Shown one piece after another: positions 48,217 through 62,693 of a stretch of DNA of 64,000 nucleotides. Source of the DNA: Halogeometricum sp. S1BR25-6 (GTDB lineage Archaea; Halobacteriota; Halobacteria; Halobacteriales; Haloferacaceae); the NCBI RefSeq assembly GCF_031624495.1, contig NZ_JAMQOP010000002.1, forward strand, positions 248,001-312,000. Direction: 5' to 3'. Positions within the stretch are counted from its first letter, which is position 1. Every line of letters starts with the position of its first letter. The notes beneath the pieces are model-generated. The model saw only the letters and a program-made list of their open reading frames with translations. It was not told the origin of the DNA and searched no databases. The position numbers and the translations under genes were made by a program.

Positions 48217-48604
48217 ACCGAGTCGGGAGCGAAGGTCGGGTTTCGCGGCCGGGTGGTGTTCCCCGAGACAGCGACACCTCCGTAGGTGGCAGGAGTGGGT
48301 CGAGACGATTTGTGCTTCCTTTAGGTTCGTCAGAAGAACGAGTGGGTTGGGGCGGATTCGCCCTGATGCAAGACGGCTTCAGACAGGGGTCTTTCGCCGA
48401 CTTGCTGACCCCCCGGTTCGCAAGCTCACCCCGGGACGCCGGCCTGCATGTACCTATAGGCACCCAGTCAGTGACGGTGCATGCGCATGAGAGCCTCCCG
48501 ATCATCCTAGACTCCGACTCTGGTTCTGCCTCGATGCCGATCAGCTCCTGTGTCGGATCAAGACACGATGGCTATTGTCCCTGTTTGCTGGTTGCTATCA
48601 GACA
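48217..48604. other. Island junction region with several hairpins, no gene
   Basis: This 388-bp stretch joins the high-GC chromosome to the island. Visible structures are the stem GGGCG-GATT-CGCCC near 48,350, GGGGTC paired with GACCCC across about 48,387-48,413, and the near-palindrome GTACCTATAGGCAC at about 48,450. I found no tRNA-like cloverleaf. It may be a remnant of an IS200/IS605-type end or the left attachment region. Confidence 0.45.
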
Positions 48605-49642
48605 ATGCACGATTCAGCCGTCACACCGACAAGTGCGGTCGAACAGTATCTTGAAGCACGCGAGTACGAACTCGCTGAGTCAAGCATTCAGAATATGCGG
48701 TACAGGCTCAAGCAGTTCACGAAATGGGCCGAGATGAAGGAGTTAACCGATATGCGGGAACTCAATGGCCGGCACGTCGAGCAATATAAGCTCTGGAGGC
48801 AAGACGATGATCTGGCACCGATAACCGTTCAGCAACAGCTTCAGACTCTACGTGTGTTCCTGAAGTGGTGTGAATCCCAAGAGTTTGCCCAGCCGGGCGT
48901 CGCAGATCTGGTGAGAATACCGACTGTCAGCAAGGCCAATCGGACTCGAGACGACGCGATTAGCTCAGTCACGGCAAATGATATTCTTAGCTTCTTTCAG
49001 AAGTACGATTATGCTTCTAGAGACCACGTCGTATTCCATCTGCTCTGGCACACGGGTATCCGTCTCGGGTCGCTTAGGGCACTGGACCTCTCCGATTGGT
49101 GCGTAGAGTACTCAGACGGTAGGGAGGACGCCTACCTCGCGATCCGCCACCGGCCAAATACCGGAACTCCGCTCAAACTGCAAGAAATGGGTGAGAGAAA
49201 TATATCCATTCTTGATAAAGATCTGATCAATGCAGTACAAGACTACATCGATCGAAACCGAGCTGAGATAACGGATGATAATGGGAGAGAACCGCTGATT
49301 ACGACCAATCAGGGGCGAATAAGCAAAAACAGCGTTCGGTACACTGTCTACCGCGCTACTCACCCATGTCAGTACCGCGGGGAGTGTCCACACGACCGAG
49401 CAGAATCCGATTGTGACGCTCGTTCCAACGTGAGTGAGGCATCGAAGTGCCCGTCAGCAGTTGGCCCTCACGCCATACGACGATCCGCTATCACCGCACA
49501 CTTAGACGCAGACGTTCCGAAGGAGATCGCCTCGGAACGAATGGCTGTCTCGCCAGATACCCTCGAGGACCACTATGACGTCCGTACGAATGAGCAGAAG
49601 CGGACTCGGCGTCAGAGATACCTCCACGATCTCAACATCTAA
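48605..49642 (+). CDS. Tyrosine recombinase/integrase (XerC/D-like)
   Basis: This 345-aa protein catalyses site-specific recombination. Residues 1-110 are the SAM-like core-binding domain (SAVEQYLEAREYELAESSIQNM...). The catalytic domain has the first Arg in LLWHTGIRLGSLRALDL, the HxxR in GPHAIRRSAITAHL and the final Tyr in LEDHYDVRTN. A Cys/His-rich insert (CQYRGECPHDRAESDC...) before the HxxR box is typical of haloarchaeal integrases and probably binds zinc. ATG at 48605 gives a sensible start; an extension to 48575 is possible. It defines the left edge of the island and lies 1 bp from the next gene. Confidence 0.93.
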   Translation: MHDSAVTPTSAVEQYLEAREYELAESSIQNMRYRLKQFTKWAEMKELTDMRELNGRHVEQYKLWRQDDDLAPITVQQQLQTLRVFLKWCESQEFAQPGVADLVRIPTVSKANRTRDDAISSVTANDILSFFQKYDYASRDHVVFHLLWHTGIRLGSLRALDLSDWCVEYSDGREDAYLAIRHRPNTGTPLKLQEMGERNISILDKDLINAVQDYIDRNRAEITDDNGREPLITTNQGRISKNSVRYTVYRATHPCQYRGECPHDRAESDCDARSNVSEASKCPSAVGPHAIRRSAITAHLDADVPKEIASERMAVSPDTLEDHYDVRTNEQKRTRRQRYLHDLNI

Positions 49643-49643
49643 A

Positions 49644-50255
49644 ATGAAATCACACTTCGAAGACGAGCGAGAATTCAGTCAGTGGCTCTCAGATCGGCTG
49701 GACGGCGCCACTGTGATACGAAGTGTAATAGATCCAACTACTGGTGACCGAACGGGGTTCACACTGAAGACAACTCATCAGTCGGGAGTAGCGCGGAACG
49801 ACACAGAAAGACCCGACATCGAGATGTTCCACAACATCGACTTCGATCACACCTGGTCGCAGCGGGAGGAGTACGCGTACCCACCAACGAATCCTGTCTA
49901 CATCGAATGTAAGATCGGTGATGCATTCCGTGAGCGAGGGGAACAGGTGGCGGATCGATCAGACACGGGGATCCCTGCAATTCAGCGCGCGCTCCCCGGC
50001 CAACTCCGTGACTACCAGAATGGGGACAGTAAATCTCTAACAGGTGCAGGGCCCGATTCCGATATCAAGTGGACAGTGCTCGTGACTTGCCCCTTCATGC
50101 TTGATGGAGTTCTCTCCGAGAAGGCGATCTCGGGTTTCTCCCTCGAGCAGTTCAAGCAAACGTTACGTGCTTTGAGTCTCGGATGGGTCTACCGGCACGA
50201 ACACGGCATTGTCCTCCAGATGGATGCCCTCAACTCGTACTTGGTGTTAGACTGA
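49644..50255 (+). CDS. PD-(D/E)XK nuclease-like protein beside the integrase
   Basis: This 203-aa protein starts 1 bp after the integrase stop. Around residues 60-95 the pattern RPDIEMFHNIDF followed by PVYIECKIGDAF gives Asp ... Glu-x-Lys spaced as in PD-(D/E)XK nucleases. The rest is mixed alpha/beta with a Trp/Tyr-rich C-terminus (LGWVYRHEHGIVLQMD). Possible roles are a restriction-like defence nuclease or a resolvase-type accessory of the island. No family was recognised, so the nuclease call is motif-based. Confidence 0.6.
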   Translation: MKSHFEDEREFSQWLSDRLDGATVIRSVIDPTTGDRTGFTLKTTHQSGVARNDTERPDIEMFHNIDFDHTWSQREEYAYPPTNPVYIECKIGDAFRERGEQVADRSDTGIPAIQRALPGQLRDYQNGDSKSLTGAGPDSDIKWTVLVTCPFMLDGVLSEKAISGFSLEQFKQTLRALSLGWVYRHEHGIVLQMDALNSYLVLD

Positions 50256-50343: not shown

Positions 50344-50418
50344 TTCGGTGTAGCTGATCTTCTCTCGGGTCAGAGCGGTGTATCGGTCGATATCGGCAGT
50401 CTGAGTGGGGTTCAGTAG
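50344..50418 (+). pseudogene. Remnant A: 3' end of a Rep-like gene
   Basis: In the frame ending at the TAG 50416-50418 the sequence reads ...LLSGQ...VDIGSLSGVQ, matching the C-terminus of the intact Rep-like protein (LPVEFEGMSGFE) and remnant B (LFSGQ...LPVDIDGLSGME). No start or catalytic region is present upstream, so this is a truncated copy. Confidence 0.75.
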
Positions 50419-50422
50419 TGCT

Positions 50423-50439
50423 GTTGGGACAGGTATTCT
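50423..50439 (+). repeat. 17-bp site, copy A
   Basis: GTTGGGACAGGTATTCT lies 4 bp after the remnant A stop codon. The same 17 bases recur exactly at 50922 and 60331. Confidence 0.9.
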
Positions 50440-50666
50440 GAGACGAGCTCGTGTGAGAATCCATCAACTTCCTAGAATGCTTGATCTCAAGCAGTAGACA
50501 ACGAATCAACTGCTCGGTCTGCTCTACTTTGTGATCGCTTCTGGGTGACTGACCCTTAGTGGAGTTCGACTGCTATCCGTTTACCCCTGTGTCCATATCC
50601 CATTCGTCCAAGATAATACCAAACAGCGAATGTTGGACGTTAGCTAAAACCGGATGATTCCAGTGG

Positions 50667-50765
50667 TACGTATGATACGTAAAATACGAGTAAAGTAGAT
50701 ACCACGAGTTACCTGAGCAATTCATCTAATACGTATAACACGCATGATACGGGTGAAACGTGTTG
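50667..50765. repeat. Two clusters of 9-bp iterons
   Basis: Three units in direct tandem (TACGTATGA, TACGTAAAA, TACGAGTAA; 50667-50693), then 36 bp, then four units (TACGTATAA, CACGCATGA, TACGGGTGA, AACGTGTTG; 50730-50765). The consensus is TACGnnTnA with a strict 9-bp period, much like plasmid replication iterons or the operator of a ribbon-helix-helix protein. Confidence 0.8.
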
Positions 50766-50842
50766 TGTGGCCCTGAATTCAAAGCGCAAGTCGGTCAGAA
50801 GATATGACTCGCTCAGCCTTTCCTCGCTCACCCCAGAAGAGA

Positions 50843-50917
50843 GTTGACACGACTGATCTCTTCTCAGGTCAGATCGATCTACCGGTCGATATCGACGGTT
50901 TGAGTGGGATGGAGTGG
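50843..50917 (+). pseudogene. Remnant B: 3' end of a Rep-like gene
   Basis: In frame it reads VDTTDLFSGQIDLPVDIDGLSGMEW, homologous to the intact Rep-like C-terminus and remnant A. The stop seen in the intact copy (TAG) is TGG here, so this copy is also decayed past its end. No upstream coding region remains. Confidence 0.75.
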
Positions 50918-50921
50918 TGCT

Positions 50922-50938
50922 GTTGGGACAGGTATTCT
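50922..50938 (+). repeat. 17-bp site, copy B
   Basis: Exact copy of GTTGGGACAGGTATTCT just past remnant B. It shares extra flanking bases with copy A (TGC before and G after). Confidence 0.9.
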
Positions 50939-51066
50939 GGAGCGCTCGTGAAGTATATCTCGACTAGCAGTCGGTGAGTGCTTCTTTACGGGCGCTATAC
51001 TCAGATTATGAGCCTTCTACGTGACGAGCTTCATTGATAACATAGAATATACCAACGACTTGCTTC

Positions 51067-51090
51067 GGAGGAAGTTATCACAGAGGGGGA
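51067..51090. repeat. 24-bp dispersed repeat, copy 1
   Basis: GGAGGAAGTTATCACAGAGG and the following four bases match 62294-62317 at 22 of 24 positions. In both places it lies about 100-130 bp downstream of the 17-bp site, so the two repeats form one module. Confidence 0.7.
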
Positions 51091-51114
51091 GTCAACCAGC
51101 CGTCCAGTAGGAAA

Positions 51115-51846
51115 TCAAACAGAGAGAGTACGGCCGTTCAGTCGAAGCCACTCGCGCCGACTCTCGTAATCTGGAACGATAGAACCGACCGCATTCCAGA
51201 ATCCCCGGGAATGCTGCTCGTGCTCATAGTGAGCCAACTCATGGACAACGACGTAGTCCTGGATTCGGACTGGCGCGAGAATGAGACGCCAGTGGAGTCG
51301 CACTGTTCCGTTCTGAAATTCGCCCCAGTTCCGTTCTAACTCGGTCACCTCTATGGGCCGATCCGACGCTCCGAATTTCGGAGAATAGAGGTCGACTCGG
51401 TCCACGAGCTCGTCCTTCGCACGAGAGACATACCAATCGACGACAGCCTGTCGTTTCCGTCGGACGCTTACATCGTCGCTCGGTTTGTCGAGTTGATGGA
51501 CTTCGAGCGTAAACGTATGATCGTCGAACGACAGTCGGGGTTCCGAGACGTCCGCCTCTTCGACTTTGAGTGGATACTGTCGCCCCCGATACGGAAGTTT
51601 CTCCCCGCTTAGGAATTCGCGATCGCCCTGTGGGTCCGCTCCCTCTTCTAAGTGGTAGAGTTTCTCTAGCAACCATCCTTGTTTCTCACCAAGTACAGAC
51701 TCTACTTCGTCGTACGTCGCACGCATCGGAGCCTTCACGGTGAGAGTCATTGATTCATCCATCGAGAGCCCGATGGTGGACCGCTCCTGCGACCAATCGA
51801 TCTTATACGGGATCACGGTCTGACCGATGTGGTACGTTCGGCTCAT
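51115..51846 (-). CDS. YgjP/DUF45-type metallopeptidase linked to type I RM
   Basis: This 243-aa protein has the zinc-metallopeptidase signature VVHELAHYEHEQHSRGFW near residue 200, where HExxH supplies two metal ligands and a third His lies in the following QHSRGFW. The preceding RPIEVTELERNWGEFQ is typical of YgjP-like (DUF45/SprT-related) proteins. Genes of this family are frequent neighbours of hsdR in type I systems. Its ATG overlaps the hsdR stop by 4 bp, so it is coupled. The peptidase role in the RM system is unknown. Confidence 0.88.
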   Translation of the reverse strand: MSRTYHIGQTVIPYKIDWSQERSTIGLSMDESMTLTVKAPMRATYDEVESVLGEKQGWLLEKLYHLEEGADPQGDREFLSGEKLPYRGRQYPLKVEEADVSEPRLSFDDHTFTLEVHQLDKPSDDVSVRRKRQAVVDWYVSRAKDELVDRVDLYSPKFGASDRPIEVTELERNWGEFQNGTVRLHWRLILAPVRIQDYVVVHELAHYEHEQHSRGFWNAVGSIVPDYESRREWLRLNGRTLSV

Positions 51847-54812
51847 TCGTAGTGTGCCCGGGCAAGTTCGATAACGCGATTCGTGAGCTCGTCGCGTTCG
51901 TCCGAACTGAGATCGATGTCAGAACGGAAAAGCTGGATCTTCACCTGCTTCCGCATCCGATCTTGAACGTGCACCTTCTGTTTCCACTCGACAACTCTAG
52001 CCAGCTTTTCGACCTCGTCGATGATCTCGCTCGTGAGCTCTAAGAGCTGATCTTCGCCAACATCGCGGTTGTCGCCTCGGAGAACGTCTTCCAGCGCGTG
52101 ATAGAACGAGAGTTCCGTAGTGTCATTCAGTCCCTTCTTCTGCGCTGCTCGATTCCGGGAGCGCATGTCGTCAAGAACATCACGGAGTTCCTCGATGATC
52201 TGTTTGTCCGAGAGACGCTTCTGCCGGTACTCCTCGATCAGCTCCTCGACTCGTTCCCGAAGCGAACTGAAATGGACAGGGTCCTCATCGTATCGAACGC
52301 TCAGTTCGTGCTTGACCGCGTTCTGCATCTCGCTAGCTCGCGCCTCGTCGTCGTCCATCTTATCGAGACGGGTGTCGAACTCCGATTTGTCCATCACGGA
52401 TACCGGCTCTTCGTTGAGAACCTCGATACCGGACGAACTGAGATGCTCCTGAATGAGCTCTCGCACTTTCTCACCGCACCCCTCCAAATTCATCGAATCA
52501 TCGCGATAGCGCTGCTTCGCACGGGCGTGGATCTCGCTGAGTCGGTTCAGATCTTCTTTGTAGGGGTTCGCGAGGGGGTTCGGAAGGACAATGTCCATCA
52601 GCTTCGAGAAGCGCTTGAACGCGTTCTGGAACTCGATACGGACGTCGTCCGGTTCAAGGGTCCGGAGACAGGCCTCCACGTCGTCCAGGTCGTCGAAGAA
52701 CGAGATCGCTTTCCGGTGAGAAGCCTCCAGTTCGGGCTCCTTGTCTTCGAGGGGAACCATGGCGTGACGGACGTCTTCCTCGCTGAACATCGCCAGCGCC
52801 TCGCGTAGGTCGTCTGAGACGCCGTAGTAGTCGATGATGATTCCGTGGTTCTTCTCCGCGTACGGTCGATTGACTCGCGCGATAGCCTGCAGGAGATTGT
52901 GCTCCTTCAGCGGTTTGTCGAGGTACATCGCCTGCGCGATTGGCGCGTCGAAACCGGTGAGGAGCATATCACAGACGATGAGGAGTTCGACGTCGCCGTT
53001 ATCGTCGACGAAAGACTCCTTGTAGTCCCGGAGTTCGGAGTCGGTCGGTGCCCACTTCTTGACGTCCTCGGGGTCGTTATGGGCCTTCGAGATGACGACC
53101 CGCGACTCGGGGCCGTTGAACTGATCGAGCTTCTTCTTGTAGCGAATCGCTGCACGCTTGCTGGTCGTGACGACCATTCCCTTGAACGGGCGAGCGATCT
53201 CGTTCTCGAAGTGCTCGATGACGTCGAGAGCGACACGTTCGATCCGCGACTCCGCCTCTGCGAGGTCCTGTTCTCGAGCGTATCGCTTCTTGATCTCGGC
53301 TTTCTCCTCCTCGGTGTACTCATCGAACACGCGATCGAAGATGACGTCAAGGTCCGCTCCTTCGAGGTGGATATCGGCCAGCCTCCCCTGATAGAGAATC
53401 TCGACGGTCGTGTCGTCCTCCAGCGACTGGTCGATAGTGTATGTGTCGATGTAGGTTCCGAAGGTCCGCCGTGTGTCGCGCTCTTCCTTCTCGATCGGCG
53501 TTCCGGTGAAGCCAATATAGTACGCTTCCGGGAGCGCAGTGCGCATGTTGTTCGCGAGTGATTTGTACTGGGTTCGATGGGCCTCGTCAACCATCACGTA
53601 GATGTCGTCGTCACGAGAGAGAACCGGGAAGTCACCTTCCTCGTCATCACGAAGCTGGAACTTCTGGATGAGACTCGTAATTGTTTCGCCGGCGTTGTTC
53701 TTGAGTTTCTCTCGGAGGTCCTTGATGTCGCCGGCTCGCTTCGGATTCGGGAAACCACAGCGTTCGAATGTCCCATGTATCTGTTTGTCAAGTGACCTTC
53801 TGTCGGTGACGAGCAACAGTGTCGGATCGGACTTCGCACGGCGGAGCTTCAGCGCAAGGAACAGCATCGTGAGCGACTTCCCAGATCCCTGCGTGTGCCA
53901 GATGACGCCACCCTGTGCCTCACGTGATCCTCGGTGATTGATCTGTTCCAGTGCTTTCTCGACCGCTCGATACTGCTGGTACCGGGCAACGAGTTTCGCC
54001 GTCCCGCTCTTCTTAGTGTCGTAGACGGTGAAGTGTCGAAGCTGATCGAGCAATCGGCTTGGCTCGAACAGCGCGTACAGCATCCGGTGCTGTGGGGAGA
54101 CGTAGTCGGTCCCGAAGAGACCCGATAGGTGCTCGTCGTCTGCGGGGTACGCGTCGCGCCACGGTTTGTACTGATTCCTCGGCGTTCCGTACGTGCCCAT
54201 AACGGCCCCCTCGTACCACGTCGCAACAGAGAACTGGTTGTAGCGGAAGAGTTCCTCTGCTCCTTCAGATCCCGTCTCTTCACGCTCGTTCTGGTACCGC
54301 TGGAGTTGTTCGAGCGCCTCGCTTCGGGGTTCGGCGATAGTCGGAGCCTTGCATTCGATGACGCCGAGCGGGAGACCGTTGACGAACAGAACGATGTCGG
54401 GTTTGACCACCTCTATCGGACCCTCCACTCGGAACTGATTTAGTGCGAAGAAGTCGTTGTTCTCGGGATCTTCGTAGTCGATGTACCGAACTGTCTGGTG
54501 CTTCAGCCCGTGACCTCGATCCTGCTGGACCGACGTGTGCCGAACGAGTTTCTCGTGAATCTGTTCGTTCTCGTCCATCGCGCTCGCCCCGCCGATTTGC
54601 TGAATCTCACGGACGACCTTGTTTAGGTTGTTCTCGTCAATCCACGGGTTCAGCCGTTCGACGGCGTCGCGAAGGCGGTTTTCGAGTACAGCCGAGGACT
54701 CGGTCTCGCGAGGATCGAGCCAAGTGGAGCGTTGCTGGTCAGCGACCTTCCAGCCCAGTTGGTGGAGAACCGTGAGAGCGGGGCGTTCGGTCTCGGTGTA
54801 CTCATCAGACAT
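51843..54812 (-). CDS. hsdR: Type I restriction enzyme R subunit
   Basis: This 989-aa ATP-dependent restriction and translocation subunit cleaves unmodified foreign DNA with HsdM and HsdS. The N-terminal nuclease domain has PDIVLFVNGLPLGVIECKAP (Asp, Glu-x-Lys) near residue 145. The helicase motor has the Walker A TQGSGKSLTMLFLA near residue 315, DEAHRTQY, and TGFDAPIAQAMYLDKPL later. The C-terminus has a long helical region that contacts the M subunit. The gene follows hsdS with 2 bp between. Codon use and GC are those of the island. Confidence 0.94.
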   Translation of the reverse strand: MSDEYTETERPALTVLHQLGWKVADQQRSTWLDPRETESSAVLENRLRDAVERLNPWIDENNLNKVVREIQQIGGASAMDENEQIHEKLVRHTSVQQDRGHGLKHQTVRYIDYEDPENNDFFALNQFRVEGPIEVVKPDIVLFVNGLPLGVIECKAPTIAEPRSEALEQLQRYQNEREETGSEGAEELFRYNQFSVATWYEGAVMGTYGTPRNQYKPWRDAYPADDEHLSGLFGTDYVSPQHRMLYALFEPSRLLDQLRHFTVYDTKKSGTAKLVARYQQYRAVEKALEQINHRGSREAQGGVIWHTQGSGKSLTMLFLALKLRRAKSDPTLLLVTDRRSLDKQIHGTFERCGFPNPKRAGDIKDLREKLKNNAGETITSLIQKFQLRDDEEGDFPVLSRDDDIYVMVDEAHRTQYKSLANNMRTALPEAYYIGFTGTPIEKEERDTRRTFGTYIDTYTIDQSLEDDTTVEILYQGRLADIHLEGADLDVIFDRVFDEYTEEEKAEIKKRYAREQDLAEAESRIERVALDVIEHFENEIARPFKGMVVTTSKRAAIRYKKKLDQFNGPESRVVISKAHNDPEDVKKWAPTDSELRDYKESFVDDNGDVELLIVCDMLLTGFDAPIAQAMYLDKPLKEHNLLQAIARVNRPYAEKNHGIIIDYYGVSDDLREALAMFSEEDVRHAMVPLEDKEPELEASHRKAISFFDDLDDVEACLRTLEPDDVRIEFQNAFKRFSKLMDIVLPNPLANPYKEDLNRLSEIHARAKQRYRDDSMNLEGCGEKVRELIQEHLSSSGIEVLNEEPVSVMDKSEFDTRLDKMDDDEARASEMQNAVKHELSVRYDEDPVHFSSLRERVEELIEEYRQKRLSDKQIIEELRDVLDDMRSRNRAAQKKGLNDTTELSFYHALEDVLRGDNRDVGEDQLLELTSEIIDEVEKLARVVEWKQKVHVQDRMRKQVKIQLFRSDIDLSSDERDELTNRVIELARAHYE

Positions 54813-54814
54813 CG

Positions 54815-56125
54815 CTAGTCAGTCTTGACGCGGACCTTTCCGGTGAGGAGGTCTTGCATGAGCCCACGTTTGAGATCTGACAGTTGGCTCCGTCTTTCAT
54901 TTTCGAGATCAATAGTTCTGTTTACAACAGATAACATCTCAATTATTTCTTCCTGCTCCTCGATAGGTGGTAGGGGAATAATCAATTGTTTCACAATTTT
55001 GTTGTTCAGCCCTTTGCGAGAGGACCCATAACTCAGTGACTGGATTTGGAGGCGTATCAGGTTGGAACTGTTAATTACTAATGATAGAAACTCTGGAAGA
55101 CAGACAGAGTCCGGTCGTATCCGAATCAAGCTGTCACTTATTATCCCTTCCTTAGCGTTTTCGGGGAATACCGTGGACTTTCCGATCGTGCCACGTCTTG
55201 TTACCAAGACGTCACCGGGTATAGGAGCAGCAGATTCTAATTGCTCAAATTTGTCCTCGGAGATGTAGTCGTCGCGCAAGCTAAAGTCATCATTTATCAC
55301 ATGGTCCTGAACATATATTTTGTACCCTTGTTCAACTCTGTTCCCCTTTTTTATCCTGCTACCTGGTGGCCCCCCTCGCAGACCATCTTTCCCAGGTAGA
55401 ATGATGTCATCAATCGCCTCCAACTCCCACGATTTCGGTACTTGGATGCTGATCGGCCCGACTCTCAAAGAGTTGTACTTGTTGTGGCCGATACCATTCT
55501 TTAGCAGGTTCTGAAGTAGCCCTTCTCGTAGCTCAGTCCGCGTCTCGATTATTCCGTCTGTCTGCTGAATCTGTTCCTCAACCGTCGAGAGTATGTCGGC
55601 AATACGGCGTTGTTCGGGGAGTGAGGGAAGCGGAATAAGTGTTTTTTCCAGATCCTTCCATGAAGTCCGTGGGAGGTTTGTCCCTTCCATCGTTGAGACA
55701 ACTCGGTCTCGGATGAGCTTCGAGTGCATTAGGTGAGGTAGGTATTGCTGATGTGTATCCTCCTTAGCGTATAATGGGATAATATCTGAGGAGCAGACGC
55801 CCGAAAACGGTGCGATGGCAGCCTTATTCAGGTTCGGACGAAGTTTCCCGAAGAGGACATCACCTTTACGAAAGACCCTCGAACTACTGCGTTCTCGTCC
55901 ATCCTCGTCGTAGCCGTTGATTTTGAGTTGTCCGCTGTCAAGGTGTTTAAGACCGACGTACCGGATTTCTCCATCTTCGAGATCGTCTACGGAAGCGCGC
56001 CTACGCTGATATACGTTCCCAAACCGCTCAGTCGACCAGTCGCTCGGAACGATAAACGTCTTCGGTCCAAGTTGAACCTCTTCGTATCCCTCACGAAGGT
56101 CAGACTGCTCCAAGGCTTCACTCAT
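54815..56125 (-). CDS. hsdS: Type I specificity subunit
   Basis: This 436-aa protein decides the target sequence. Two target-recognition domains are visible (residues ~20-165 and ~225-375), each followed by a conserved helical spacer: LPSLPEQRRIADILSTVEEQI near residue 165 and LPPIEEQEEIIEMLSVVNRTI near residue 375. The second domain region is notably AT-rich (about 54,950-55,400), suggesting recent exchange of the recognition part. The two TRDs differ, implying an asymmetric bipartite target. It overlaps hsdM by 4 bp. Confidence 0.93.
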   Translation of the reverse strand: MSEALEQSDLREGYEEVQLGPKTFIVPSDWSTERFGNVYQRRRASVDDLEDGEIRYVGLKHLDSGQLKINGYDEDGRERSSSRVFRKGDVLFGKLRPNLNKAAIAPFSGVCSSDIIPLYAKEDTHQQYLPHLMHSKLIRDRVVSTMEGTNLPRTSWKDLEKTLIPLPSLPEQRRIADILSTVEEQIQQTDGIIETRTELREGLLQNLLKNGIGHNKYNSLRVGPISIQVPKSWELEAIDDIILPGKDGLRGGPPGSRIKKGNRVEQGYKIYVQDHVINDDFSLRDDYISEDKFEQLESAAPIPGDVLVTRRGTIGKSTVFPENAKEGIISDSLIRIRPDSVCLPEFLSLVINSSNLIRLQIQSLSYGSSRKGLNNKIVKQLIIPLPPIEEQEEIIEMLSVVNRTIDLENERRSQLSDLKRGLMQDLLTGKVRVKTD

Positions 56126-57687
56126 TGATACTCCAACTCCTCCATGTACTGCTGCAGTTCCTCCTTGGTATTCCGACGTTTTGTCTCCAATTCATCAATC
56201 TCCCTGAGCTTCTCACTCACGTCGATTGGCTCCTCGGGCTCTGTCGTGTCGACGTAGCGAGGTACACTCAAACTCCAGTCGTTCTCTTCGATCTCCTCCA
56301 TATCGACCAGCCGACTATGATGCTCCTCTTCGCGCCCGGTGAGGTGCGTCTCAGCGAGGTACGCGACACCATCCTGTGTGAGCTGATTCTGATTCGAGAG
56401 CTCCTCGAAAATCTGCACCCCCGACTCCCGGAGCGTCTGGTCCTCGGCGTAGATGAACTGGACCTTGTCCTTGCGCTCTGCAGGCTTGTCCTTGTTCATG
56501 ATGAGGATACACCCCGGGGACGAGGTGTTGTAGAAGAGGTTCTCAGGTAGCGCGATGACGGCCTCGATCAGGTCGGCTTCCAGAACCGGCTTGCGGATTT
56601 TCTTTTCCGAACGGGACCGGAACAACACGCCGTTGTCCATCACGATGCCCGCCTTACCCGTCTCCGATAGCGACGCGATCATGAGCTGAATCCACGCCCA
56701 ATCGCCTCGATTCTTCGGCGGGAGTCCGTGTGGGAATCGATTGTACGGCTCGTTCTCTTCGACCCACTCTTTGTTCCAACTCTTCTGGTTCCACGGCGGA
56801 TTCGCGACGACGCGGTCGAACGGTTCGAGTTCGTCATGCTCTGTGACGAATTTCGGCGTCCGTATCGTGTCGCCCTTCGCGATGTCGGCGTCCTGTAGCT
56901 CGTGGAGGAGAACGTTCATTTGGCCGATCGCCCATGTATTCAGGTTCTTCTCCTGCCCGTAGAGAGAGATGTCGTCCCGGTCGCCACCTTCCTCTTCTAC
57001 GTGTTGGGCCGAATAGATGAGCATCCCACCGGAGCCACACGCCGGGTCGTATACGCGGTCCCCGGGTTCCGGATCGACGCACTCGACGAGTAACTGAACG
57101 ATCTCACGGGGCGTGTAGAACTCGCCACCCTTCTTCCCGGCGTCGTCGGCGAACTGGCGGATGAGGTACTCGTACGCGCGACCGAAGATGTCCGGGTCGA
57201 CGAGGTCCTCGTTCCGATAGCGATGCTTCGAGAAGTGAGTGACCAGTTCGTCAAGCGTTGCGTCCGATAGCCTATCCTTGTCGTTGAAGTCAACCGAGGT
57301 GAGGACCCGATCAGCGATGACGTCGTTCTCGTCCTCAACTGCTTCGAGCGCTTTGTTGAGGGTCGCCCCGATGTCCGATTCCTGTGCGCTGATGTGGCTC
57401 CAACGAGCTCGCTCCGGCACCCAGAACTCGTCGTGGAGGTCGCGGTCGGTCTTCACGATGTCCTCGGGGATGTCGTGCTTCTCGGACATCTCCTCCGTCT
57501 CTTCTTCGAACCGGTCGTTGATCCGCTTCAGAAACAGGATGCCGAAGATGTAGTTCTTGTAGTCCGCTGCGTCGATGCTCCCCCGCAAAATGTCTGCAGC
57601 CCCCCAGAGATGGGTTTCCAGAGTGTCGAGATCGAGAGTCTCCGACTCGGTGTCGATGCCGGAGAGCGTCTCTTGGTCCGAGTCCAT
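56122..57687 (-). CDS. hsdM: Type I N6-adenine methyltransferase subunit
   Basis: This 521-aa methyltransferase protects host DNA at the HsdS target. AdoMet motif I is DPACGSGGMLIYSAQH near residue 210 and the catalytic motif is NPPWNQKSWN near residue 280. The N-terminal helical domain (LETHLWGAADILRGSIDAADYKNYIFGILFLKRINDRF) is typical. A TATA box sits 25-32 bp upstream of the ATG, predicting a leaderless message and one promoter for hsdM-S-R plus the peptidase gene. Confidence 0.95.
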   Translation of the reverse strand: MDSDQETLSGIDTESETLDLDTLETHLWGAADILRGSIDAADYKNYIFGILFLKRINDRFEEETEEMSEKHDIPEDIVKTDRDLHDEFWVPERARWSHISAQESDIGATLNKALEAVEDENDVIADRVLTSVDFNDKDRLSDATLDELVTHFSKHRYRNEDLVDPDIFGRAYEYLIRQFADDAGKKGGEFYTPREIVQLLVECVDPEPGDRVYDPACGSGGMLIYSAQHVEEEGGDRDDISLYGQEKNLNTWAIGQMNVLLHELQDADIAKGDTIRTPKFVTEHDELEPFDRVVANPPWNQKSWNKEWVEENEPYNRFPHGLPPKNRGDWAWIQLMIASLSETGKAGIVMDNGVLFRSRSEKKIRKPVLEADLIEAVIALPENLFYNTSSPGCILIMNKDKPAERKDKVQFIYAEDQTLRESGVQIFEELSNQNQLTQDGVAYLAETHLTGREEEHHSRLVDMEEIEENDWSLSVPRYVDTTEPEEPIDVSEKLREIDELETKRRNTKEELQQYMEELEYQ

Positions 57688-57711
57688 ATCTAACGGTTCT
57701 ATCCTTCGACT

Positions 57712-57719
57712 GGTATATC
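57712..57719 (-). promoter_or_regulatory. TATA box of the hsd operon
   Basis: On the minus strand GATATACC is centred about 28 bp before the hsdM ATG at 57687. This fits a leaderless promoter for the four-gene operon. Confidence 0.65.
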
Positions 57720-57892
57720 TCTTTACCTATGGTTTCTCGCTGTCCGCCTTCTCCCCTTACGGAGACTCAGACCGAGTATTGGTAGACGCTCTGTCTATCG
57801 AATTCACACCCTAGTCTACTGTATTCAGGAAAAAGACGTCGAGACTACGCAGCAAATAGCGTGTCCCGACTCAAGAGGTACCGGCGAGATGA

Positions 57893-58909
57893 TTAGAGGT
57901 GATGCTGTTGAACGGTGACGTCTCCGCCCTTGACCGAGATCATCTCGACGCTGGGTTGGAGACCGCCCTTCGTATCTCCCAGAGCCCCGGTCGACCCACC
58001 CGAGAGACCTCGGTGTCGTCCGACTGTAGTCTCTTTCCTGGTGTGAACGTGGCCAGTAATAGTCAGATCTATCGGTACATTCGACGTGTTCATCAAATCG
58101 CGGAACGAACAGTCCGGATTCTTCTTCGCGGTAAACGGCGAAACTGACTGGTGGATGAACAGAACCGTCGGGACCGCAGATGGAGGACGTTCAAGCTCGA
58201 ACCCTGTCCACTCGTACTGGTGGTCAACTCCGTAGATAGACACCGTATCGGAAATTATCTCAGGTCGGGAACTGAGATGAGTCGCGATGCCATCTTCGAC
58301 TAGTTCTTCCATCTCCCGACGCCCTGCTTCTCGTTCGTGATTGCCGTAGATGTAGTAGAACGGGATGTTGTGTACGAACAGATCAGAAAGTTTCTCTCGG
58401 CACAGAGTGACATCTTCGTCCGTAATGCCGGTCTTCGAGTTGTGATAGAGGTCCCCGCCGTGGACGACTGCATTGACGTTCCTGTTCACGGCGTAATCGA
58501 TCGCGTCACTGAATCCAGCCTCGGGCGAGACAGACCATGTGTTCCGACCGTATCCGTGGGTCGTCTTTCCGAGGTGGCTATCGGTCATGTACAGAATTTC
58601 TACTCGGTTCTCCTCGCCACCTCTCTCGAGGCGGTTGATTTTCAGTCGAGATGTACCGTGTATCAACGTTCCCGCTGGCCAGACGTTGGCCGAAATCCCA
58701 CTGAGTCGGTACCAGCATCCTTCCTTCCATTCGTAACTGCTTCCGAGAGTAGATTTCTCCCACACGATGAACTCGAATTCGGTCCCATTAACGTCTGAGA
58801 CAGTCATCTCGTACGCTCGATTCTTTATATGTGATTTCCTGCACTTCACGACCTGAACGGGCAGTTCATAGGTCCCTTCATTTCCGAGATCCTCGTACGT
58901 CGCAGTCAT
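57893..58909 (-). CDS. OB-fold plus Mre11-type metallophosphoesterase
   Basis: This 338-aa protein joins an N-terminal OB-fold domain of about 95 residues (VQVVKCRKSHIKNRAYEMTV, FEFIVWEKSTL) to a phosphoesterase. The five metal motifs of Mre11/SbcD nucleases are present: TDSHLGK, VHGGDLYH, YGNHERE, FIHQSV and TGHVHTRKE. The architecture also recalls DP1, the small subunit of archaeal polymerase D, but the length is much shorter. A DNA-end nuclease or repair/defence role is likely. It has its own promoter and an 11-aa leader ORF, and ends 206 bp before hsdM. Confidence 0.82.
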   Translation of the reverse strand: MTATYEDLGNEGTYELPVQVVKCRKSHIKNRAYEMTVSDVNGTEFEFIVWEKSTLGSSYEWKEGCWYRLSGISANVWPAGTLIHGTSRLKINRLERGGEENRVEILYMTDSHLGKTTHGYGRNTWSVSPEAGFSDAIDYAVNRNVNAVVHGGDLYHNSKTGITDEDVTLCREKLSDLFVHNIPFYYIYGNHEREAGRREMEELVEDGIATHLSSRPEIISDTVSIYGVDHQYEWTGFELERPPSAVPTVLFIHQSVSPFTAKKNPDCSFRDLMNTSNVPIDLTITGHVHTRKETTVGRHRGLSGGSTGALGDTKGGLQPSVEMISVKGGDVTVQQHHL

Positions 58910-58941
58910 GCGATTAGCTGATAGAGATCAGTACGTTCCAT
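58906..58941 (-). CDS. 11-aa leader ORF overlapping the phosphoesterase start
   Basis: ATG at 58941 begins MERTDLYQLIA and the stop overlaps the ATG of the phosphoesterase gene (ATGA). The TATA box at 58971-58980 places the transcript start just before this ATG, so this would be the first ORF read on a near-leaderless message, with the large protein made by coupling. Sequence supports the arrangement; translation is inferred. Confidence 0.4.
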   Translation of the reverse strand: MERTDLYQLIA

Positions 58942-58970
58942 GACTAGTAATCTTTTCTGTAAGTCTTTAT

Positions 58971-58980
58971 TTTATATAAC
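58971..58980 (-). promoter_or_regulatory. TATA box of the OB/Mre11-like gene
   Basis: Minus-strand GTTATATAAA is a strong AT-rich TATA box. At the usual ~27-bp spacing the transcript begins near 58,948, close to the leader ORF at 58941. Confidence 0.65.
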
Positions 58981-59209
58981 TACAGTCATAGCACGACTGA
59001 GTCGGCTCAGATGGTGGAGTAATCCGAGGATATAGCAACCAGTCTACCGGTCGACACCCAGAACCTGAGTGAAGTCCTCAGAAGGTCAATACAACTAGTG
59101 CACAGTGGCTGCATGGAACTCTGTCCAATCTACGTCTAGCTTATAACGGTCGCTATGACTACGGATGATATGAGTACGAGAGGGCACAGTCTCTCGACAT
59201 ACTCTATTC

Positions 59210-59377
59210 ATGACTCAAGCGAAACGAACCACAATTATGATCTACGACAGCGAGAAGCGGGCTCTCAACGAATACGCCGAGAAAGTTTTCGGCCACAGTG
59301 ACATCCCCTACCGGAGCATCGTCGTCTCTCTTCTCCACAACGCGGATATCTCCGTCGAATCCGAAATCAGCGAATAA
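59210..59377 (+). CDS. Small conserved-looking protein (55 aa) upstream of rep
   Basis: This 55-aa ORF reads MTQAKRTTIMIYDSEKRALN and continues with EYAEKVFGHSDIPYRSIVVSLL. The early beta-strand (TTIMIYD) and two helices resemble a ribbon-helix-helix DNA-binding protein, the class that often controls plasmid copy number. It precedes the Rep-like gene by 94 bp. This makes it a candidate to bind the 9-bp iterons. The family was not recognised for certain. Confidence 0.6.
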   Translation: MTQAKRTTIMIYDSEKRALNEYAEKVFGHSDIPYRSIVVSLLHNADISVESEISE

Positions 59378-59471
59378 GCTCTGAGCTGAGCTCAATTCGC
59401 CCCTCACACGTCGCAATGAGATCCGATACACAACCGAGTCGTCCAGAGAGATTTCCCTGCTCGGGGGTAGA

Positions 59472-60326
59472 ATGACCCTCACTGACATCGCTCGTCAGTT
59501 CCAACCGGGAAACGATCCCGAGGAAACTCTGCTGCCAAAGGGGACGATATCGGATGTTCTCTCGACAGACCCGGATATCGTGGGGCCCGAGGAATTACGC
59601 GGTCTGACGATATCGGACGCTGAAGACGCTTACGTCGGAGTGCGGAGAGCTGAGGCCATAAACACGAGCTACCACTCCGGCACGAAACACGAGCGCGCAA
59701 AGCGCCAGTACCGACTGCTGCTACAGATCGACCGAGTCGCCCGTCAACAGTTCGAGCAGCCAGCCGTCGGCATGCAGACGGTCGTTTTCGATCCCACGCA
59801 ATTCGACCGTGTGCTCGATCCGATCGCACAAGCGACGATTACGACCGAAGGGGTAGAGAGATCGATTCGACGAACACGGGATCGGCTTGACGGAGAGAGA
59901 TACGTCTACTTCGGAGTTCGAGATATCGATAGCAACGGTCAGAGTCACTGGCACGTGTATTGGTGTCTCGACCAGGTGGTCGTCGCTGGTGATTCACTCG
60001 ACCTGTATGCTGGGATTGAGGCTCACATTCGACATGCCACTGGAGCAGATTACTCGAATCATCCTGCCACTGAGGCTGTGAAGTGGGACCCGTATCCGAA
60101 CCAAACTGCTGAGGAATGGGGGTCAGACAGAATGAACGGTGGTGCTGTACATCCGTGCGCGCGCTATGTGGCTGGGAGTCTGCCTCATATTGGAGTCGAT
60201 GGGGAGATGAGTCCGAAGCAAATCAGGCACGGTGTGGTCGAGTGGGGTCGGTCGGATCGAACCGTTCGAGTTTCTCGTCGGAACGCTCTTCCTGTCGAAT
60301 TCGAGGGGATGAGTGGGTTCGAGTAG
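59472..60326 (+). CDS. HUH-type Rep-like replication/transposition initiator
   Basis: This 284-aa protein has the HUH metal motif in GQSHWHVYW (residues ~157-163), preceded by the beta-strand YVYFGVRDID, and a Tyr in CARYVAGSL (residue ~232) in the right place for the nicking Tyr of rolling-circle Rep proteins. Motif 1 may be MQTVVFDPTQF near residue 101. Its C-terminus (LPVEFEGMSGFE) recurs in two broken copies at 50.3 and 50.9 kb, and the 17-bp site follows 4 bp after its stop. A plasmid-like or transposon-like origin is inferred. Confidence 0.65.
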   Translation: MTLTDIARQFQPGNDPEETLLPKGTISDVLSTDPDIVGPEELRGLTISDAEDAYVGVRRAEAINTSYHSGTKHERAKRQYRLLLQIDRVARQQFEQPAVGMQTVVFDPTQFDRVLDPIAQATITTEGVERSIRRTRDRLDGERYVYFGVRDIDSNGQSHWHVYWCLDQVVVAGDSLDLYAGIEAHIRHATGADYSNHPATEAVKWDPYPNQTAEEWGSDRMNGGAVHPCARYVAGSLPHIGVDGEMSPKQIRHGVVEWGRSDRTVRVSRRNALPVEFEGMSGFE

Positions 60327-60330
60327 TCCA

Positions 60331-60347
60331 GTTGGGACAGGTATTCT
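60331..60347 (+). repeat. 17-bp site, copy C
   Basis: Exact copy of GTTGGGACAGGTATTCT, 4 bp after the stop of the intact Rep-like gene, the same spacing as copies A and B. Confidence 0.9.
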
Positions 60348-62190: not shown

Positions 62191-62293
62191 GCGCGCGGGT
62201 TTTTTGCTCAACTGGTGTTCTGGACGGACGACAGAAGCGTTTTATCCCCAATATTCTACAAACCCCATATACTCTAGTAATGATGGTTGTTCT

Positions 62294-62317
62294 GGAGGAA
62301 GTTAACACAGAAGGGGA
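62294..62317. repeat. 24-bp dispersed repeat, copy 2
   Basis: GGAGGAAGTTAACACAGAAG and the next four bases match 51067-51090 at 22 of 24 positions. It is ~104 bp downstream of site D, just as copy 1 is ~128 bp downstream of site B. Confidence 0.7.
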
Positions 62318-62693
62318 GAGGAGCAGTCCTGGCGATAGTAGTCAACGAACAACTCGCCCGATCTCGGGGTCAACATCGTTCAAGGAATGATGAAGCGGTC
62401 ACGAGATACGATTTCGTCTTCGGTCTCTAATATGCGATTCGCGAGCGATCGAGAACACTTGAAACGTACTCTCCCCCCTCGATCCCGACCAAAATGTGGC
62501 CCGAGCGAAGTCATCAGTGATGACCGCCACGATCATTGTCCTCAGGTTCTCAACGTTCTGGACGACGGCTATGACGTTTAACCCTCCATACTTGAATGAC
62601 GCGTAGTAACAACCCCGGTACTCAGTGGTCTAACTTTCTAATCTGAAATTGTCCATCAGACGGGAGCTGAATCGGCTATCCGTGTATCCACAA

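What the first reader, a model, noticed from the sequence alone, without database searches (positions are those of the whole stretch)
50344..60347. Exact 17-bp site after three Rep-like 3' ends
GTTGGGACAGGTATTCT occurs at 50423, 50922 and 60331, each time 4-5 bp after the C-terminal end (LPVxIxGLSGxE) of a Rep-like gene. At two of the three places the gene is only a truncated remnant, and the coding part has diverged to about half identity while the 17 bases are unchanged. That pattern says the DNA site, not the protein, is under selection. It could be the nick site or terminus of a rolling-circle or HUH-type transposon, like terminus/origin sites beside IS91-type transposases. I know of no described element with this site.
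Basis: partly seen in the sequence, partly recalled or inferred. Interest (0 to 1): 0.8.

Follow-up and report, generated by a model that had tools for sequence, protein, structure and literature searches.

The report
Plasmid Rep gene's putative origin site
A 17-letter DNA sequence found only three times in a salt-loving archaeon's genome follows the end of a rolling-circle plasmid replication gene (or a leftover of one) each time, and is most likely the DNA site that protein recognises and cuts; relatives suggest such genes are often bracketed by two copies of their own site.

Summary
GTTGGGACAGGTATTCT occurs at 50423, 50922 and 60331 and nowhere else in the 4.5-Mb genome within one mismatch. 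The gene at 59472-60326 belongs with the haloarchaeal rolling-circle Rep family (Pfam DUF1424, e.g. pZMX201), with an HxH motif and a conserved Tyr. Its closest homolog (53%, Halomicroarcula SYNS111) has the site's 11-bp core ACAGGTATTCT at its own stop codon. There the 69 bp upstream are only 49-59% identical, yet spacing to an upstream palindrome-like segment is kept. The sites are not the att of the tyrosine integrase. They lie inside a 25-kb tRNA-Val island (20-bp att repeats 48341/73375) that is absent from relatives. In related islands the integrase-ORF226-primase backbone is compact. In distant DUF1424 Reps, exact direct repeats (29/29, 26/26) or near-exact ones bracket the rep gene: one copy in its 5' coding region, where the known TCTCGGC origin of pZMX201 lies, and one near its 3' end. 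Best reading: the 17-mer is the nick/recognition half of a bipartite rolling-circle origin, and the extra copies are footprints of site-mediated integration or recombination of related replicons. Nicking and mobility were not tested, and membership in IS91 is not supported.

The parts
48341..48360 (.). Left 20-bp att repeat of the enclosing island; partner is at 73375-73394 (beyond the window, in L054), the 3' end of tRNA-Val(cac)
   Evidence: exact 20/20 repeat; tRNA-Val at L054:13376-13451; the interval is absent in relative G391
48575..49642 (+). Tyrosine integrase of the enclosing tRNA-Val island
   Evidence: Pfam Phage_int_SAM (2e-6) and weak Phage_integrase
49575..50255 (+). ORF226, island backbone gene; ends just before site 1
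   Evidence: homologs lie between an integrase and an NrS-1-type primase in G364 and G108
50354..50422 (+). Rep-like 3' tail remnant in front of site 1, with palindrome-like TCGATATCGG at 50387-50396
   Evidence: 80% nt identity to the site-2 tail, 61% to the intact rep
50423..50439 (+). Site 1, exact 17-mer
50853..50921 (+). Rep-like 3' tail remnant in front of site 2 (LPVDIDGLSGME; stop codon changed to TGG), palindrome TCGATATCGA at 50886-50895
   Evidence: 67% nt identity to the intact rep
50922..50938 (+). Site 2, exact 17-mer
50939..60347 (+). Unit between site 2 and site 3 (9.4 kb): inferred former circle carrying cargo plus rep
   Evidence: bounded by direct copies of tail and site; inference
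51115..51846 (-). YgjP/SprT-like metallopeptidase, part of the restriction cassette
   Evidence: Pfam YgjP-like 2e-45
51843..54812 (-). HsdR, type I restriction subunit (cargo)
   Evidence: Pfam
54815..56125 (-). HsdS, specificity subunit (cargo)
   Evidence: Pfam
56122..57687 (-). HsdM, methyltransferase (cargo)
   Evidence: Pfam
57893..58909 (-). Calcineurin-like phosphoesterase (cargo)
   Evidence: Pfam
59210..59377 (+). Small 55-aa gene upstream of rep, possibly a ribbon-helix-helix protein (fold not tested); conserved with rep in Halomicroarcula
   Evidence: 70% identity over 37 aa to L023:9249-9359
59472..60326 (+). Rep, 284 aa, HxH (H159, H161) and conserved Y232
   Evidence: 53% to Halomicroarcula rep; profile E 1.4e-31 to pZMX201-type Reps through its family
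60295..60304 (.). Palindrome TCGAATTCGA, 36 bp start-to-start before site 3; candidate Rep binding half
   Evidence: same 36-bp spacing at sites 1 and 2; centre differs but stays palindromic at sites 2 and 3
60331..60347 (+). Site 3, exact 17-mer, 4 bp after the rep stop codon
62171..62189 (+). Site 4, degenerate copy GATGGGACAAAGGTATTCT with related downstream sequence at 62287-62318

Best explanation
The gene at 59472-60326 is a rolling-circle replication initiator of the haloarchaeal HUH (DUF1424) kind. The 3' end of the gene plus the 17-mer is its bipartite cis-acting origin: a short palindrome inside the last codons (probable binding half) and, 36 bp further on, the 17-mer (probable nick half). 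The two extra tail-plus-site copies are left-hand junctions made when related circular replicons carrying this origin joined an already present copy by recombination at the site, catalysed by Rep or by host recombination. The last arrival would be the 9.4-kb unit 50939-60347 with a type I restriction system as cargo. All of it sits inside a larger island that moved by its own tyrosine integrase into tRNA-Val. Shown: the site's rarity, its link to rep ends in two genera, conservation beyond the coding context, the island boundaries, and the compact backbone elsewhere. Inferred: nicking, which half is bound or cut, and the integration route.
For: Site only at rep ends in this genome. Core ACAGGTATTCT at the stop codon of the only close homolog, in another genus, single in that genome; core 11/11 while 69 bp upstream are 49-59% identical. 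The four tail-site blocks align without a gap over 87 bp although the reading frames end differently. Rep family assignment. Distant Reps carry their own direct repeats: 29/29 in L020, 26/26 in L070 (read in two frames), 17/19 in G087, 12/12 in L074; the 5' copy lies where TCTCGGC lies in pZMX201 and pSN. In G073 and G249 those repeats occur nowhere else in the genome. Literature: haloarchaeal RCR origins with TCTCGGC, and DSOs in the rep 5' coding region as a typical feature (PMC9569500); an origin of inverted repeat plus hairpin directly downstream of rep in SNJ2 (PMC13107129). int-ORF226-primase backbone compact in G364 and G108.
Against: No stable hairpin at the site (z -0.5 to -1.7), whereas known RCR nick sites often lie in one. 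The site is present in only 2 of 391 haloarchaeal genomes, so conservation rests on few independent cases. No 5' copy in this rep. The 9.4-kb unit was not found as a free circle or alone elsewhere, and its restriction cassette moves without this rep. Site-mediated integration is inferred from junction structure only. The AlphaFold model was too poor to confirm the HUH fold.
Confidence: 0.55

Rival explanations
1. The block (tail plus 17-mer) is a terminus of a rolling-circle transposon in the sense of IS91/ISCR: Rep moves the adjacent DNA one-ended from this site, and the remnants are abandoned ends.
For: HUH-type protein with the site directly at its 3' end; right boundary of homology is sharp at TATTCT (no downstream similarity between sites 1, 2 and 3); rep genes bracketed by two site copies in distant relatives.
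Against: All copies are confined to one island and there is none elsewhere in the genome; no defined second terminus; closest homolog sits in a 6-kb tRNA-Gly integrative element with its own integrase and one site; named relatives are RCR plasmids of 1.7-2.5 kb.
Confidence: 0.15
2. The 17-mer is the crossover core (att) of the island's tyrosine integrase, which targets rep 3' ends as others target tRNA genes.
For: Integrase lies 0.8 kb left of site 1; direct repeats flank cargo.
Against: The island's att is a 20-bp tRNA-Val repeat with empty sites in relatives; the homologous rep in Halomicroarcula sits in an element with a tRNA-Gly repeat pair while its site core is internal and single.
Confidence: 0.05
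3. The site is not under selection: the rep 3' end was duplicated recently by ordinary recombination or gene conversion, and the identical 17 bp are leftover identity.
For: Between sites 1 and 2 alone, identity of 17/17 given 80% upstream is only mildly unusual (P 0.02).
Against: Against site 3 the same figure is 2e-4 to 1e-3, and the core is intact in another genus where upstream identity is 49-59%; spacing to the palindrome is kept.
Confidence: 0.12
4. The site is a regulatory or transcription-termination element of the rep gene rather than its origin.
For: Position just after the stop codon.
Against: No T-run or stable hairpin; a probable version of the motif lies on the opposite strand in L020, with a second copy inside the coding region.
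Confidence: 0.1

Closest known systems
Haloarchaeal rolling-circle plasmids of the pZMX201/pSN kind (Rep = DUF1424)
   Same: Homologous Rep with HxH motif and conserved Tyr; cis-acting origin linked to the rep gene
   Different: Known origin TCTCGGC lies in the 5' coding region of rep; here the candidate site has another sequence, lies at the 3' end, and the replicon is integrated and carries cargo
SNJ2 / betapleolipovirus replication module (Rep-Arvir)
   Same: Origin directly downstream of rep, made of a palindrome followed by a conserved nick element (PMC13107129)
   Different: Rep-Arvir is a different, non-HUH family according to that paper; its nick element is a stable hairpin, absent here
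IS91/ISCR rolling-circle transposons
   Same: HUH nuclease gene next to a cis site where replication is thought to start
   Different: No ter end, no dispersed copies, direct repeats of one site instead of distinct ori and ter; family membership not supported
tRNA-integrated haloarchaeal genomic islands (tyrosine integrase type)
   Same: The whole region is one: integrase, tRNA-Val att repeats, NrS-1-type primase
   Different: The 17-mer sites are an additional, independent recombination-like feature inside it

Membership tests
DUF1424 / HUH rolling-circle Rep | Sequence homology to DUF1424 Reps | tested here: met
   Window protein itself has no Pfam hit, but its single-sequence relatives L010 and L012 hit DUF1424 at 7e-12 and 3e-13; family profile against pZMX201-type profile E 1.4e-31
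DUF1424 / HUH rolling-circle Rep | HUH (HxH) motif and downstream catalytic Tyr | tested here: met
   H159-W-H161 and Y232 invariant in the 9-member alignment
DUF1424 / HUH rolling-circle Rep | HUH endonuclease fold | tested here: inconclusive
   AlphaFold on 2 sequences gave pLDDT 38; sequence search of PDB found nothing
Rolling-circle double-strand origin | Cis site specific to the Rep, beside its gene and kept with it | tested here: met
   small number of independent cases
Rolling-circle double-strand origin | Known haloarchaeal nick sequence TCTCGGC in the rep 5' region | tested here: not met
   none on the rep strand in or near this rep
Rolling-circle double-strand origin | Hairpin at the nick site | tested here: not met
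   folding z-scores -0.5 to -1.7
Rolling-circle double-strand origin | Nicking by the Rep | not testable with these tools
   needs purified protein
IS91/ISCR transposon | Distinct ori and ter ends with insertions at dispersed loci | tested here: not met
   only one locus in the genome; no second terminus seen
Tyrosine-integrase att site | Site coincides with the ends of the integrated element and is restored in empty sites | tested here: not met
   ends are the tRNA-Val 20-bp repeats

The most novel reading that the evidence does not exclude
Haloarchaeal DUF1424 rep genes are themselves mobile units: a rep bracketed by two direct copies of its own nick site (site-rep-site, about 0.8 kb) can be released as a rolling-circle product and home into the origin of other replicons, replacing their rep and capturing cargo between sites. 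The window would show such homing events stacked in one island, with cargo (a restriction system) caught between two sites.
Probability: 0.15. Interest if true: 0.75.

Novelty: new variant of a known kind. Interest (0 to 1): 0.5.

Why it matters
It gives a concrete candidate for the origin site of a haloarchaeal Rep subfamily for which no origin was found described in the papers searched. It also suggests that rolling-circle origins serve as landing sites by which plasmids and their defence cargo accumulate inside integrase islands. The bracketing of rep genes by direct repeats of a site, seen in several distant relatives, was not met in the papers searched and can be tested directly with oligos and shuttle vectors.

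Tried and rejected
Tyrosine-integrase att site: rejected. Hairpin structure at the site: not significant. A further tail-like sequence at 59043-59071: within the noise of the island. A 5' copy of the site in this rep: none. Viral contigs: no rep homolog and no exact 17-mer; 14-mer and 18-bp motif hits are unrelated to rep. Plasmid and phage collections: no direct homolog of this rep. AlphaFold with 2 sequences: useless; no permitted homologs from viral contigs to deepen it. A DNA profile of tail plus site over 391 genomes: only the known four at E below 1e-18, the rest noise. The restriction cassette as a guide to element borders: it occurs in other plasmids with other neighbours.
Full report
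Observation. The 17-mer GTTGGGACAGGTATTCT is present at 50423, 50922 and 60331 on the + strand and has no other match with up to 3 substitutions in the window; 100 shuffles gave a mean of 0.07 matches and never three. In the whole genome (4.5 Mb, 9 contigs) only these three lie within one mismatch. Each copy begins 4 nt after the final codon position of an LPVxIxGLSGxE-like tail. The tail ends in TAG at 50423 and 60331, but at 50922 the stop is TGG and the small frame reads through. Only the copy at 60331 follows an intact gene (59472-60326).

What the gene is. The 284-aa protein has no direct Pfam or PHROGs match. A single-sequence search of 391 class genomes finds a 53-54% homolog (Halomicroarcula sp. 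SYNS111) and weaker ones at 21-33%. Several of these match Pfam DUF1424 'putative rep protein' (7e-12, 3e-13, 2e-8). A nine-member alignment keeps HxH (H159, H161) and Y232 invariant. The family profile matches a separate profile of pZMX201-type Reps at E 1.4e-31; pZMX201 Rep itself is DUF1424 at 4e-63. It therefore belongs with the rolling-circle Reps of haloarchaeal plasmids. The HUH fold itself could not be modelled.

Where it lies. An exact 20-bp repeat, 48341-48360 and 73375-73394, is the 3' end of a tRNA-Val gene. The interval is absent in relative G391, and in other relatives the flanking genes are likewise close to the tRNA-Val. Its GC content (0.49-0.59) is well below the flanks (about 0.70). 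This is a 25-kb island with its own integrase (48575-49642) and an NrS-1-type primase near the far end. In G364 and G108 the order integrase - ORF226 - primase is compact (about 6 kb in G364). In the window about 22 kb, including all site copies, the type I restriction system, rep and a Fic gene, separate ORF226 (end 50255) from the primase (72115). The site copies are therefore in cargo inserted into an integrase island and are not the integrase att.

Constraint on DNA. Between the three window copies and the Halomicroarcula rep end, 69 bp upstream are 49-80% identical while the 11-bp core ACAGGTATTCT is identical in all, and the 17-mer is identical in the three window copies. The four 87-bp blocks align without gaps although the reading frames end at different places. 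A palindrome TCGATATCGA or TCGAATTCGA lies 36 bp (start to start) before sites 2 and 3, and TCGATATCGG at the same spacing before site 1. Downstream similarity stops at once after TATTCT. In Halomicroarcula the core is single in the genome, in an element with a tRNA-Gly repeat pair and its own integrase. A small gene upstream of rep is also shared (70%).

A family-wide pattern. In L020 (23% identical Rep) a 29-bp exact repeat lies in the rep 5' coding region and right after its stop, 829 bp apart. It contains AGAACACCTGT, one mismatch from the reverse complement of the window core. In L070 a 26-bp exact repeat lies in the 5' coding region and near the 3' end, read in two different frames. In G087 it is 17/19. 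In L074 it is 12/12, and L075 and L069 carry related copies at matching places, with inverted copies as well; L074 alone does not exceed its shuffles. The L020 and L070 repeats occur nowhere else in their genomes. In pZMX201 and pSN the motif TCTCGGC, reported as the origin of haloarchaeal RCR plasmids (PMC9569500), lies at the same 5' place (+105, +63). An origin directly downstream of rep, palindrome plus nick hairpin, is established by mutagenesis for SNJ2, a different Rep family (PMC13107129). The 5' and 3' repeats are thus plausible Rep sites. Why both occur is not known.

Mechanism, with status. Shown: rarity and rep linkage of the site, DNA-level conservation, island boundaries, cargo position. 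Inferred: the 17-mer is the nick or recognition half of the Rep origin; the palindrome in the last codons is the binding half; the remnants are left junctions from earlier joining of related replicons at the site; the 9.4-kb unit 50939-60347 was the last such replicon. In that reading the circle would be rep - site - cargo, and integration at an existing tail-plus-site copy would give exactly the order seen: remnant tail, site, cargo, intact rep, site.

Limits. The close Rep group has two members in the genomes held, so conservation rests on few cases. No stable hairpin was found. The 9.4-kb circle was not observed. Its restriction cassette is found in other plasmids with other neighbours. The IS91 idea is not supported as membership, because there are no dispersed copies and no second terminus. 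How haloarchaeal DUF1424 Reps relate to SNJ1 RepA, published as an IS91-transposase homolog (reference seen), was not tested here.

Noticed in passing
L076 and L077 (G205, G355), rep-like ORFs: These DUF1424-related proteins have lost the HxH motif (PHEH is replaced by PREY) and lack the 5' copy of their site while keeping ATGACTATG at the stop; possibly inactivated or repurposed Reps.
   Followed up: partly
L088 (G339 contig C21, 12472 bp): Two identical rep 3' regions 2.9 kb apart in direct orientation, and a 55-bp terminal overlap of the contig; may be a circular plasmid with a tandem duplication, or an assembly effect.
   Followed up: no
window 51115-57687: YgjP/SprT - HsdR - HsdS - HsdM cassette is 73% identical at DNA level to cassettes on Haloferax gibbonsii pHGLR3 and a Natronosalvus plasmid, with unrelated neighbours: it moves as a unit.
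   Followed up: yes
G331, G359, G391 at the tRNA-Val locus: Two or three tandem copies of the tRNA-Val att 3' end about 120-130 bp apart remain in relatives, suggesting repeated visits by integrases.
   Followed up: partly
window 50640-50770: AT-rich stretch with repeated TACGTATGATACG-like elements between sites 1 and 2, like operator or iteron repeats.
   Followed up: no
window 62287-62318 and 51060-51091: Related 32-bp segments (84%) lie about 115-140 bp after the degenerate site 4 and after site 2, hinting that both begin related replicon remnants.
   Followed up: partly
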